From assembly GCA_030280995.1 (NCBI GenBank), contig JASXTE010000001.1, positions 17,920,606 through 17,984,605 on the forward strand: 64,000 bases of DNA. The letters run 5' to 3'. The DNA comes from Hemileia vastatrix. Taxonomy: Eukaryota; Basidiomycota; Pucciniomycetes; Pucciniales; Zaghouaniaceae. The notes under the pieces were generated by a model that did no database searches, was not told the DNA's origin, and saw nothing but the letters and a program-made list of their open reading frames with translations. Every line of letters starts with the position of its first letter. The first letter of the stretch is position 1. Below, piece after piece: positions 32,991-59,721 of the stretch. Position numbers and translations under genes: made by a program.

Positions 32991-33614
32991 GAAAGCTTAA
33001 TGATTCTCTAAATAGAGGATCAAATATTTGTGAGGGCTTGAAGCTAGTAAAAACTGAATAATTTTTGGTCTAAATATGATTAGTCAACATTAAAAGTTAC
33101 TATTTCTGAAAGGAGTATAATTTTCAGCCTGTAAATAGAGTAGACATAAAATAGAAACCCTATGGTACTATTTGGGTACTCTCAATTATTTCTCTACAAC
33201 TAATCTATTTTTGAGAAAGAAACTTTGAAATATTTTTAGTTATAATATGAATTCATCTAATAATATATTTAAGGTAATTATGAAAGTATTTAAAGCTCTG
33301 AGAAAAAATTATTATTAGGGATCAGGAATTTTTTTTTCCAGGATCAGACATTATTAATTGCGGAAGATTCTTATCCACTAGCCCCAGGGCAAGTCAATAA
33401 GGAATCCACGATAATGCATTATCCTGCCTCTTATACCCCAATTTCCATTGCTAATTCCTGATCCCAAACTCATCACATCCATGATGGATTTGCAAGAAAG
33501 TCACATGACTCATAATTGCTGATGCCATCCTTAAGTCTTTCCTTACTCTATGCCACTTAGTTTTGGTGGCGAACACTTAAGTTTTTTTTCTATCTACACA
33601 CCCCAACTGCACAT

Positions 33615-34926
33615 TTGGCAGTGAATTCCCACTTCCCTCATCACATAACCCTTCCACCGGCAACAATTAAACACCTCTCTACTAGGAAGCTACTTCACTC
33701 AACAATGAATGCTATTACATTTCTTTTAGTTCTTTTCTATAAATCTGACTCTGATTTGGAAGATGCTTTAGCTTATATGTGTTTTCTTTCCAAAAAGCAT
33801 TACATCATCACCAGGGGGCCAAATCTTTAACATGATCCCCAATATGATCTGGCCTCCATTCTCAACATTCCTCATTTAAACTTCACCCAACTTTTTAGAA
33901 CTTCTCCCGATTCTTTCTTCAAACTTTATCAACTCATTTCTGAAAATCCTATCTTCCATAACAATTCTCATAAAAACAGCATAATCCTGCCATCCAACTT
34001 GCTGTTGCTCTATGTCGCTTTGGCTCAAATGGAAATGATGCTGCCGTAAGACGTTTGGATAATCTCTTTAACATAGGATATGGTACCGTGATATTATACA
34101 CCAAGCGCTGTATGATTGCTATCCTTTCCCTCAAGTCTCAAACTCTTGCTTGGCCAACTCCAGAACAGCGACTTGAGTCCTCTCAAGTAATGCAAGCTGA
34201 AGGTTTCCCTGGCTGTATAGGTTTTGTTGATGGCACAACCATCCCTTTGAGTCAAAAGCCTGCTTATGATGGCAACCATTATTTTGATTGCAAAAAAAGG
34301 TTTCTTCAAAATCTTCTCCAAGCTCTCATCTTTCACAATCTAACTTTTTATCTTCTTTCTAGATACTCTATTGCCATTCAACTTGTATGCAATGTCAATA
34401 AAAAATTTATTTCTTTTCACTGTGGCTGCCCGGATCATGTCATGACTCTTCCATCTTCCAAAGAATGAGGATTTCTCAATCCCCTGACTCATACTTTGAA
34501 GAATCTCAGTACCTCCTTGCAGACTCAGCATATGCAAGTGGAAAGTACATTATACCTGCTTTCCGTGGTGCAACTTCAGAAAATGACCCCAAAACTGCCT
34601 TTAATTATCACCTTGCACAATCAAGAGTACAAATTGAACATGCTATAGGTATTTTAAAGGGAAGATTTTTTAGTCTTTGGGAGCTCAGAATCCAATTTCA
34701 AAAAAAATTGGAGATCAAAACTGCAAATCATTGGATCTTGACTTGCGTAATACTCCACAATATTCTAGCTGATTTAAAGGATGAGTGGAATGATCTTTAT
34801 GAAGAAGAGGATCCTGAACCACCACCAGCACTCCCCTACCTTGATTCACAAATCATTCAATCAAACGGCATACGCTCCATTATAATGCCAATTACTCTCC
34901 AACATTTCACGTTGCAACGCTTTTAA
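33615..34926 (+). pseudogene. Harbinger B transposase, decayed
   Basis: Same blocks as in Harbinger A: TRKLLHSTMNAITFLLVL, ALCRFGSNGNDAAVRRL, GYGTVILYTKRCMIAI, the Asp of IGFVDGTTIPLSQ (34210-34250), the Asp of YLLADSAYASGKYI (34512-34550) and the Glu of RVQIEHAIGILKGRF (34625-34670). It has lost its ATG (ATT at the position equivalent to 28257) and has a stop near 33826, a frameshift near 34000 and another near 34440. The probable intron is at about 34298-34361. The last 153 codons (34465-34926) are intact. Confidence 0.85.
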
Positions 34927-35763
34927 TTTTTAATTTTTATGTTTGCATACTTTCCAAATGTCCTATTTGTGTACTTTATTCACTTGGTTTTGTATTTTGG
35001 TTTGTTGAATATTCATTTTTTTTTGAATTTATCACAGGAGAAAAAAACAGTGAACTAGACGTCTAGTTGTTTTTTTGGTCCTTGTTTGAGCCCTGGTTGT
35101 GATTCTGCTCAATACCTTGGAGTGACCTTGGTTGAGCTCATCCCCTTTCACTTTCTGTCAACATTCACTCGTTTACTCACTTACACACTCACTTCTTTTC
35201 ATTCTCCCTTTCTTGCTTGTTCACTCTCTTTTTTCTTTCCCCCTTCCCCTTGTAATTGTTTGCTTGATCTTTCCTTTTTTTTCTGCCTTCTTTCTCTATC
35301 TCTCTTTTACTTATCTGTTGCCTCCCTTGCTCTTCTGCTTACTTGTTCACCCCTTCTCTGTTTTTTATCTAAGCATTCCCACTCCCTCTCTTCTTCCACC
35401 AGCACAGGTGTATCAAGCTCCACTCCATGCCTGTTAGTACTCTTTCAAAAATTTCAATTATTTAATCACTGATCATTGTTATGATTTTATCAAACATTGA
35501 TGGTCCCACTCATCATTTTCATTTCTTTTTTTGACAGTCTTGCTGTTATATTAGTTAGTATATCATGTGAATATATACTTGTTACCACAATTCACCAGCT
35601 CATGTGTTTTTACAAGTTATTTTGCTAATCCTATTTCATGTTTCCAGCTTTACCAACATGATCTTATCCATTATTTAAAATACCACCTGACATGTATCCC
35701 TTCTAAAATATCAGATCACCCACATTTTTAGTTTTTGCACAAACCATTTCTAATATGGCTGTA
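34927..35763. other. Spacer in Harbinger B, pyrimidine-rich
   Basis: No gene. A C/T-rich block (35150-35410) is open in two overlapping frames by composition alone. A perfect 16-bp palindrome AACTAGACGTCTAGTT lies at 35053-35068. Harbinger C has similar sequence at 56480-57160. Confidence 0.5.
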
Positions 35764-36626
35764 CAGTGGCCGGACAATAATTTCCACCTGTTTTTTTTTC
35801 CTCATAAATCCCTTAATATTCACTCTACAGACATGAGCTTGTACATTTCTAACTCATACAACCATGTAGAATAGGACTGTCACAAAATAAACTCAGCCGG
35901 ACACCAATTTGTAGAAAGATCACATTTTTTAAAAAAACATCATTCTTGAAATTGACAACAAGCAAGTTGACAAGTCTATCCTTTTCCTTAATGAAAGGGA
36001 TGAGGTTGGTATGAGCGTTTAGCAAAAAAGATTGGTGAAAAGTGGACAAAATTGAGCAAAAAAAGCATCACCAAGATGTAGCTTTACTGTTTGCTTCCCT
36101 AGAAACTTGCACCTTTGAAAGCAAAGATGCAATCAAGTATCCGAAATATGGTCAGAAAATCCATTCCAAGCCTATTTAAAGGCATTAAACATAGCAGGAA
36201 CTATCATTGGGTGATAAAATTACAAAACTATATTTTTGAGGTGTTTTCATGTGTTTGCAACAAGGTTTGAATAATGTGATTGGATTGTGCCAGGAGCACA
36301 GATTGTGTTTTAATTGGAATAGTATGTAGATGGTTTAACTATTGCAATCTTTCTTTCATAGATGAGATGTCGTTTGCCAGCTGAGGACCCTGTTGTAGTT
36401 TGAGTGAAAAGCGGAAAAAAAGGTAAATATTGGATAAGAGATTAATGAGTCAGTTTGGCAAGAAAAGAGAAAGAAAGAAAAAATTACCAAAATGTGAAAG
36501 GTAAATCATAAAATTATTATGATCTTGAGGCGTGAGTAGCAATGGTGGTGGTGTTAGGAAGAAGAAAAAAAAGGCCGATAACCTGGATTATGCATGCACC
36601 GGGTGAAAATTTCTGTCTGGCCACTG
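35764..36626. mobile_element. Non-autonomous Tc1/mariner-type element (863 bp)
   Basis: Ends CAGTGGCCGGACAATAATTT and, inverted, CAGTGGCCAGACAGAAATTT, flanked by TA at 35762-35763 and 36627-36628. No transposase is recognisable; a 66-codon minus-strand frame (35849-36049) is too short and featureless to call. Confidence 0.75.
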
Positions 36627-36689
36627 TACAGGGCAGGTCTAAACAAGGGGAGGGGTGAGCCAAAGATGTTGTGGAAACTAGTGATAGGC

Positions 36690-58410: not shown

Positions 58411-58759
58411 TAAGTAAGGTAAGGGGTGAAGGGTCAATGGCTACTAAAACTTTAGGGAGGGGTTCAAAATACAGTAATTAAAGTATTTCCAAATTTTTAT
58501 CTTTATTTCTTAAATTTTTAATTTATGAGTTATTAAAGATAATCAATCAATTTAAGTATTGTACCATCAAGCCCTTGTGCTGTATAAAGGTGTTCATTCA
58601 ATTATATTCGATGAATTAGTTCATAATTCCATTCTTTTCATATGTTTTCTTTGACTTTGCTCATGAAATCATTGGAAGATAGTATTTGGGATTCCTTTAC
58701 TTGGTTTATTATCTTCTTTAATTGATTTATTTAATTATTTATGAGATAACATGAAAATT
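58411..58759. other. 3' flank of the oxygenase remnant
   Basis: AT-rich, no gene. Confidence 0.5.
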
Positions 58760-58860
58760 TGGTAATCCTTACCCTCTCCCAGAGTAAAGTGCAGGGGGGG
58801 TATTGCCAAATTTTCAAATAAGATGTGTAAAATTTTTGAATTGAAAAATTTTGGAATGAA
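58760..58860. repeat. Single G-run repeat unit of Harbinger C
   Basis: GTAAAGTGCAGGGGGGGTAT followed by TGCCAAATTTTCAAAT, as in the five-unit array at 40021-40450 of Harbinger B and in the same place between oxygenase and Myb genes. Confidence 0.75.
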
Positions 58861-58889
58861 ATATGAACAAAAGAATAAAAAAAACTAGT

Positions 58890-59414
58890 CATCAAACATT
58901 TTCATTAATTGGTCCATTTCCTCAACAGACTTATTAGCTTTAATTCATTCTATCAAGAAAACTTTCAAAAAAAATTGGAATGAAATATGTATGAAATAAA
59001 AAAACTTGTCATCAAATATTTTCATTAAGTGCTCAATTTCGTACCAAAACCAGTGGAAGATGAAAGAGTCTTAGCCTTCTTGTATTTGGCTTGATAGTGC
59101 TTGAAGTGTTCAGACATATGTATAGTCAAAATATCAATCCTTCCCTTCGTCTTATTTTGTAATTTATTTTCCATTAGAAGATATCCATTGACTTTTGATT
59201 CAGGGGGCCATCCTAATTTAGTTGCATTCTCAGTACCAAAACAAGAATCATAATTAGTTTTAATTTTCAGTCAGTTGAAAAGTATGAGATGATGATCTTT
59301 GTTTAGCTGGACGGTTATTGATTTCTCAGCTGAGTGGGGGAAAGAGGAAGTAATGGTATTTGAAGAACAACTGGGGGAAGGATACATTTTAGAAGATCTA
59401 TGAGGACAAGGCAT
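58890..59414 (-). pseudogene. Harbinger C Myb/SANT-like partner, internally deleted
   Basis: ATG at 59412-59414 (MPCPHRSSKMYPSPSCSSNT), then SAEKSITVQLNKDHHLILFN and the Myb-like part down to about 59041 with frameshifts (KTKGRIDILTIHMSEHFKHY). The acidic middle is missing. The last coding stretch at 58890-58960 reads IKANKSVEEMDQLMKMF, equivalent to VKANKSVEEIERLIKF of the intact gene, and is partly duplicated at 58975-59040. Confidence 0.75.
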
Positions 59415-59721
59415 GTTAAGATATTTTAAAATGAAAACGAGAAGAAACAAACAAATGAGATGGGGAGGGGTTCTGAATGGATAGAATGAATAGACAAGAT
59501 GGGAGTGTATAGAAAGGTAGGGAGTCTGGAACATCCAGAAAGTTCTCCAAGATGTGGTTATGAAAAATTGAAGATAAATATTTCAGATAGAGGTGAACAT
59601 TGACACGTAAAATTTCTAATAACCCAATTATTAGCAAAAATAATTGCAGAAGATAACTGGGGTATAATGATTTTTATCTGCAATTAATTTAATTTTGGAT
59701 CAGTAAACATTTATACCCCCT

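What the first reader, a model, noticed from the sequence alone, without database searches (positions are those of the whole stretch)
33314..59721. Harbinger transposons that appear to carry a TET/JBP-like 2OG-Fe(II) oxygenase as a third gene
Harbinger B and C show the same order between AGGGGGTATCAA-type ends: transposase (+), oxygenase (+), G-run repeat, Myb/SANT-coiled-coil gene (-). The two oxygenases are diverged subfamilies, so the arrangement is unlikely to be one recent duplication. Harbinger A lacks the middle and looks like a deletion form. As I recall, TET/JBP-like enzymes in basidiomycetes have been linked to KDZ (Kyakuja-Dileera-Zisupton) transposons; I do not know of a described link to PIF/Harbinger. 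A DNA-base-oxidising enzyme in a transposon could counter methylation silencing. The frayed left end of B is the weak point.
Basis: partly seen in the sequence, partly recalled or inferred. Interest (0 to 1): 0.88.

Follow-up and report, generated by a model that had tools for sequence, protein, structure and literature searches.

The report
TET-like gene inside rust Harbinger transposons
Two decayed cut-and-paste transposons, probably from a rust fungus, carry remains of a DNA-demethylase-like gene; transposons of this general kind were published in December 2025, so the find adds a variant and not a new phenomenon.

Summary
The observation mostly holds. Three related PIF/Harbinger copies (A, B, C) and three ~200-bp derivatives share GGGGGTATCAAWGTT-type ends. 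The oxygenase pieces in B and C match Pfam PF20515, Tet-like 2OG-Fe(II) oxygenase: E 5e-5 and 5e-7 for B, 1e-6 for C. Both lie in the same slot, between transposase and a convergent Myb/SANT-like coiled-coil gene. Corrections: C has lost its transposase core, so only B shows remains of all three genes; B lacks its left end; both oxygenase copies are broken.

The idea is not new. Kojima (December 2025, PMC12730594) described TET+ Harbinger transposons ("PHISTA") in six rust species. What may differ: PHISTA has TA target duplications and a third protein without Myb/SANT. Here 4 of 4 elements with both ends well preserved fit a 3-bp ANT duplication (4.3% of TA sites would), though TA fits too, and the third gene resembles Myb/SANT below Pfam's cut-off. 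B and C TET pieces share 14 of 60 residues, their Myb genes 90 of 124, so the TET gene was probably swapped. The host genome search did not complete (16 tries).

The parts
27877..30974 (+). Harbinger copy A: both ends intact, 3-bp flanks ATT/ATT (also readable as TA/TA); transposase remnant; oxygenase and the C-terminal part of the Myb gene deleted
   Evidence: TIR arms 33 nt, 94% complementary; flanks; homology stops at 30203
33314..42266 (+). Harbinger copy B: right end intact, left terminal ~28 bp missing; remnants of transposase, TET-like oxygenase and Myb/coiled-coil gene
33974..34926 (+). B transposase in two overlapping ORF pieces (33974-34468, 34402-34926); DDE_Tnp_4
   Evidence: PF13359 E 8.8e-19 on the second piece, none on the first; the named relatives are rust proteins
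38367..39770 (+). B TET-like 2OG-Fe(II) oxygenase gene, broken by stops, frame changes and a 262-bp insert
   Evidence: PF20515 on two pieces, consecutive profile ranges 71-144 and 143-205; two upstream pieces (38370-38627, 38631-38783) gave no Pfam match, so the 5' limit is my reading
39107..39368 (.). 262-bp MITE-like insert splitting the B oxygenase; 100% identical stretches at 2117-2377 and 60005-60266
40010..40462 (.). G-run repeats of B: five palindromic units between the convergent gene ends
   Evidence: fold z -5.4, -3.8, -3.7 in three units; 0.1 and -1.0 in two
40593..41914 (-). B Myb/SANT-like gene (41216-41914) followed by a coiled-coil-like ORF (40593-40988); that they are one gene is inferred
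   Evidence: PF13837 E 0.007, below cut-off; A/B/C conservation
55755..59721 (+). Harbinger copy C: both ends recognisable (right end with one mismatch), flanks AAA/AAT; transposase core deleted at 56338/56339
57871..58397 (+). C TET-like oxygenase remnant
   Evidence: PF20515 E 1.1e-6 on 57871-58290; the tail piece 58272-58397 gave no Pfam match
58749..58818 (.). C G-run hairpin, homologous to the B units
   Evidence: fold z -4.7; 77% identity to a B unit
58888..59414 (-). C Myb/SANT-like gene remnant with an in-frame stop and an internal deletion
   Evidence: 90 of 124 residues identical to B
57165..57365 (.). MITE3 of the same family, inserted in C, flanks AAT/AAT
27675..27873 (.). MITE2, abutting A and sharing its ATT
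15470..15669 (.). MITE1, flanks ATT/ATT

Best explanation
A, B and C are decayed copies of one PIF/Harbinger family in what is probably a rust fungus (Pucciniales), whose longer copies carried three genes: a DDE transposase (+), a TET/JBP-like 2OG-Fe(II) oxygenase (+) and a Myb/SANT-like coiled-coil gene (-). Shown: shared ends, shared gene order in B and C apart from C's lost transposase core, profile matches, decay. Inferred: the transposase, helped by the Myb-like protein, cut and pasted the element with a 3-bp ANT duplication; the oxygenase oxidised 5-methylcytosine in the element's DNA and so eased methylation silencing or C-to-T decay; the palindromic G-run units end the two convergent transcripts (a guess). 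The oxygenase slot has probably been refilled with different TET genes over time.
For: PF20515 in both slots. DDE_Tnp_4 in B. DNA on both sides of the slot is homologous between B and C: the transposase end up to B 35031/C 56571, and from B 39984/C 58725 onward to the right end. The best inverted pair bracketing each oxygenase is no better than chance (21 of 200 shuffles as good for B, 70 of 200 for C), so no sign of separate element ends. A/B transposase dN/dS 0.35 and 0.31 over two stretches, so it evolved under constraint. TET pieces 14 of 60 identical against 90 of 124 for the Myb gene. Of 34 CpGs not shared by A and B, 26 read TG or CA in the other copy, as expected of 5-methylcytosine decay. 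The same concept is documented in rusts.
Against: Neither oxygenase copy is intact. Only B has remains of all three genes and its left end is gone. The genome-wide copy test could not be run. The 14/60 alignment used segments chosen by their Pfam match. The Myb call is sub-threshold in B and absent in the A and C pieces, and its model was useless (mean pLDDT 38.6). The protein searches with B's second oxygenase piece (2 candidates) and with the Myb ORF (566 candidates) returned nothing at their cut-offs. A missing pair of separate ends is weak evidence, since old ends decay.
Confidence: 0.75

Rival explanations
1. This is simply a PHISTA family as described by Kojima (TA duplications), perhaps one of his Austropuccinia psidii families or a close relative in another rust; the third gene is his unnamed third protein and the ANT fit is chance or target preference.
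For: All four elements with both ends well preserved also fit a TA duplication with ends GGGGG. Kojima lists A. psidii among the hosts and reports a third protein in TET+ Harbinger families. GC 32.6% fits his remark on A. psidii's very low GC.
Against: 4 of 4 sites also satisfy the three extra conditions of a 3-bp ANT duplication; 229 of 5298 TA sites in the window (4.3%) would do so. MITE2 and A share one flank, so three independent sites are safer to count. The third gene here resembles Myb/SANT, though weakly, which Kojima says his do not. The only A. psidii transposase among 25 hits is 47% identical.
Confidence: 0.4
2. The oxygenases are separate mobile genes or elements that happened to insert into Harbinger copies twice.
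For: B and C TET pieces are barely alike, the DNA around them inside the slot does not align, other MITEs are nested in the same slot, and several weak AT-rich inverted pairs do bracket the oxygenases.
Against: Same slot, same strand, same neighbours on both sides; the best bracketing inverted pair is no better than shuffles. Kojima found no ends of their own for TET genes.
Confidence: 0.1
3. The PF20515 matches mark an oxygenase that does not act on DNA, or the matches are spurious.
For: One of three matches is below the cut-off; PDB sequence search none for B's second piece and only E 0.57-0.91 for C; NCBIfam none; by eye the HxD motif is seen only in B.
Against: Three matches in two loci, two above cut-off, in the right order along the profile; PF20515 is described as Tet-like, and TET genes in rust Harbingers are documented.
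Confidence: 0.08

Closest known systems
PHISTA, TET+ Harbinger of rusts (Kojima 2025, PMC12730594)
   Same: Harbinger-type DDE transposase, TET/JBP-like oxygenase and a third gene in one element; rust hosts; TET genes exchanged between transposon lineages
   Different: PHISTA has TA duplications and its third protein lacks Myb/SANT; here 3-bp ANT fits 4 of 4 (TA does too) and the third gene looks Myb/SANT-like (weak). His figures and tables were not available, so identity with one of his families is open
Pangu group of PHIS transposons (Han et al. 2015, PMC4482050, passages)
   Same: ANT duplications, ends usually starting AG or GG, Myb/SANT second gene
   Different: No oxygenase in the passages seen; transposase phylogeny not tested here
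KDZ transposons with TET/JBP (Iyer et al. 2014, known here only as cited by Kojima)
   Same: TET/JBP cargo in a DNA transposon
   Different: Different transposase superfamily; 8-bp duplications where Kojima gives them (Zisupton, a Dileera)

Membership tests
PIF/Harbinger (PHIS) superfamily | DDE transposase of the DDE_Tnp_4 type | tested here: met
   PF13359 E 8.8e-19, B 34402-34926
PIF/Harbinger (PHIS) superfamily | short terminal inverted repeats with 3-bp (or 2-bp) duplication | tested here: met
   A and three MITEs, 4 of 4; C imperfect (AAA/AAT); B left end absent
PIF/Harbinger (PHIS) superfamily | second gene with Myb/SANT domain | tested here: inconclusive
   B: PF13837 E 0.007, 17.2 bits against cut-off 27; A and C pieces no match; model pLDDT 38.6
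PHISTA | TA dinucleotide duplication | tested here: inconclusive
   TA fits 4 of 4, but so does ANT, expected at 4.3% of TA sites
PHISTA | transposase clusters with the Puccinia TET+ and TET- Harbingers | not tested
   reference transposases not available; P. striiformis and P. coronata relatives are 59% and 50% identical over 47% and 63% of the query
PHISTA | third protein without Myb/SANT domain | tested here: inconclusive
   weak Myb match only
Pangu | 5'-ANT-3' duplication | tested here: met
   ATT three times, AAT once, of 4 elements with both ends well preserved; TA not excluded; no empty site available
Pangu | transposase in the Pangu clade | not tested
   no references held
Tet-like 2OG-Fe(II) oxygenase superfamily (PF20515) | profile match above curated cut-off | tested here: met
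   2 of 3 pieces above 27 bits
Tet-like 2OG-Fe(II) oxygenase superfamily (PF20515) | HxD...H iron-binding triad | tested here: inconclusive
   by eye: B keeps HID, C reads HVH at that place; the distal His was not placed with confidence; both copies are broken
TET/JBP (5-methylcytosine oxidation) | enzymatic activity | not testable with these tools
   -

The most novel reading that the evidence does not exclude
A second TET-carrying Harbinger lineage, distinct from PHISTA: ANT-targeting (Pangu-like), with the Myb/SANT gene kept, in which the slot between the convergent transposase and Myb genes acts as a reusable cargo site where different TET genes have been swapped in at least twice.
Probability: 0.35. 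Interest if true: 0.55.

Novelty: new variant of a known kind. Interest (0 to 1): 0.4.

Why it matters
Transposons that carry a DNA-base-oxidising enzyme are a natural test of whether mobile DNA fights methylation silencing directly. If the ANT duplication and Myb-type gene are confirmed, TET capture by Harbinger happened more than once or in a broader lineage than described. The contrast between a conserved Myb gene and interchangeable TET genes would show that the oxygenase is traded as cargo.

Tried and rejected
Host genome search (genome search 'own', the same request 16 times) did not complete, so the decisive copy count could not be made. The search for related loci with the B transposase: viral contigs 22 pattern matches, genome contigs 38, none confirmed. 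The search for homologous proteins: B oxygenase second piece none of 2 candidates, transposase 25 of 49 candidates, Myb ORF none of 566; the C oxygenase and B's first piece were not searched there, the cap being used. PDB sequence searches: none for B's second piece, six at E 0.57-0.91 for C, none for the Myb alignment. Structure of the Myb protein: ten busy answers, then a model with mean pLDDT 38.6; it shows helices at 39-59, 72-89 and 95-120, but is too poor to search with, so no fold search was run. Covariation in the G-run hairpins: 0 of 21 pairs with compensatory change, so the hairpin rests on folding energy in 4 of 6 units only. Separate ends around the oxygenases: weak AT-rich inverted pairs bracket both, not better than shuffles. 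Kojima's supplement was not open to me (0 look-ups allowed, none tried), so his family table and Figure 1 were not seen.
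Full report
What is there. The window is AT-rich (GC 32.6%) and rich in transposon remains. Of 25 relatives of the B transposase three carry organism names, all rust fungi: Austropuccinia psidii (47% identity over 83% of the query), Puccinia coronata (50% over 63%) and P. striiformis (59% over 47%); the best-scoring hits are unnamed. The host is therefore probably a member of Pucciniales; the species is unknown.

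Three Harbinger copies. A (27877-30974), B (33314-42266) and C (55755-59721) are one family by DNA: A/B 85.7% over 1679 columns on the left and 78.3% over 801 on the right; the pieces of 240 columns or more in A/C and B/C are 73-81% identical. Their ends, GGGGGTATCAAWGTT, occur 12 times in the window with up to three mismatches against 3.39 expected, 0 of 100 shuffles reaching 12. Three MITEs of about 200 bp carry the same ends, at 15470-15669, 27675-27873 and 57165-57365.

Duplication. Four elements have both ends well preserved (A and three MITEs). All four fit a 3-bp duplication ATT, ATT, ATT, AAT with ends AGGGGG, and all four also fit TA with ends GGGGG. If only TA were duplicated, the three extra conditions should be met at 4.3% of sites (229 of 5298 TA sites in the window). 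MITE2 and A share a flank, so I count three to four independent cases. A target preference could imitate this; no empty site was available (flank search in the window found none useful). C has AAA/AAT. B has only its right end.

Genes. B has a DDE_Tnp_4 transposase (E 8.8e-19). A/B dN/dS for two transposase stretches is 0.35 and 0.31. C lacks the transposase core, because its sequence jumps from the equivalent of A 28377 to A 29365 at 56338/56339. The oxygenase of B matches PF20515 in two pieces (23.8 bits, below the cut-off of 27, and 30.3 bits) that meet in the profile at 143/144; between them lies a 262-bp insert that occurs as 100% identical stretches at two other places. C's piece matches with 29.2 bits. 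Both genes are broken by stops or frame changes. The third gene, on the minus strand, is alike in A, B and C (B/A 74% over 117 residues; B/C 90 of 124); B's Myb_DNA-bind_4 match is sub-threshold (E 0.007), the A and C pieces gave none, and the structure model was poor.

Same slot, different oxygenase. Homology between B and C runs from near the left end, with C's deletion, to just past the transposase (B 35031, C 56571) and again from B 39984/C 58725 to the right end; each oxygenase lies between, on the same strand. The two oxygenases did not find each other by tblastn at E 0.5; a global alignment of their Pfam-matched parts gives 14 of 60 identical residues, z 5.5, 0 of 1000 shuffles as good. 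With the Myb gene at 73% identity, plain descent from one captured gene is unlikely; replacement or separate capture in the same slot is more likely. Kojima describes frequent TET transfer among rust transposons and says that parallel captures at similar places cannot be ruled out. Several weak AT-rich inverted pairs bracket the oxygenases, but the best is no better than shuffles (21 of 200 as good for B, 70 of 200 for C).

A is a deletion form. Its homology to B stops inside the Myb ORF (30203), and 152-bp direct repeats (91%) sit at the join.

The G-run repeats are imperfect palindromes between the convergent 3' ends. Four of six units fold far better than shuffles (z -5.4, -3.8, -3.7, -4.7), two do not (0.1, -1.0); no compensatory changes were seen. 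Transcript ending is a guess.

Methylation setting. CpG observed/expected is 0.19 over the window, 0.03 in the Gypsy ORF stretch, 0.12 in a Copia-like stretch, 0.15, 0.25 and 0.09 in A, B and C; 2-kb windows range from 0.02 to 0.87. Between A and B, 26 of 34 unshared CpGs read TG or CA in the other copy (19 of 23 left, 7 of 11 right); for C against B right 8 of 11, C against A right 4 of 7 and left 3 of 3. This fits 5-methylcytosine decay. That B is less depleted than the Gypsy ORF is compatible with protection but also with age or composition, and B is not exceptional among the 2-kb windows.

Literature. Kojima 2025 (PMC12730594; abstract, passages, sections 5, 10, 23 and 34 in full, section 24 part 1 of 2) reports TET/JBP genes in seven transposon lineages of rusts, among them 15 Harbinger families in six species, with TA duplications, a third protein without Myb/SANT, and the name PHISTA. 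It proposes escape from methylation silencing. Han et al. 2015 (PMC4482050, passages) define Pangu by ANT duplications, ends usually starting AG or GG, and place a Myb/SANT gene in it. The Ectocarpus paper (PMC12477816, passages) reports ANT Harbingers. A rust transposon survey (PMC12210899, passages) names PIF-Harbinger and DNA methyltransferases DNMT1 and DNMT5 in Pucciniomycotina; the word TET does not occur in it. Searches: JBP+Harbinger+TET 6 papers (two opened), JBP+Kyakuja 7, PHISTA+Harbinger 1, Tet-like 2OG-Fe+rust 0, 2OG-Fe+Pucciniales+transposable elements 1 (not opened), Harbinger+Austropuccinia psidii+transposable elements 3 (two opened), Pangu+Nuwa+Harbinger 3 (two opened). By titles and what I opened, only Kojima treats TET in Harbinger.

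Verdict. A real TET-like cargo in Harbinger transposons; the concept was published in December 2025. The ANT duplication, the Myb-like third gene and the swapped oxygenases suggest a variant not described in the text I read, with moderate confidence.

Noticed in passing
2117-2377, 39107-39368, 60005-60266: A 262-bp MITE-like repeat occurs three times at 100% identity in 64 kb; one copy splits the B oxygenase. By eye its ends read CAC..GTG with AGT on both sides in B. It looks recently active.
   Followed up: partly
5550-10016: A 1488-residue open Gypsy-type ORF (RVT_1, RNase H) with almost no CpG (observed/expected 0.03 over 5550-10397) and yet no stop: a coding sequence that seems to have lived with CpG loss.
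   Followed up: partly
35761-36629: A MITE-like stretch with TACAGTGGCCGGACA ends nested in B's slot.
   Followed up: no
36714-37700: Tandem ~198-bp repeats inside B's slot; units two apart are more alike than neighbours (95.9% against 90.2% with gaps), as if a two-unit period was amplified.
   Followed up: no
45747-46364: Pif1 helicase 2B domain (E 2.3e-14), possibly a Helitron remnant.
   Followed up: partly
29600-30204: 152-bp direct repeats (91%) flank ~300 bp at A's deletion join, perhaps from gap repair.
   Followed up: no
55121-55438: Tc3-type transposase HTH remnant (E 1.7e-5, below cut-off) next to C's left end.
   Followed up: no
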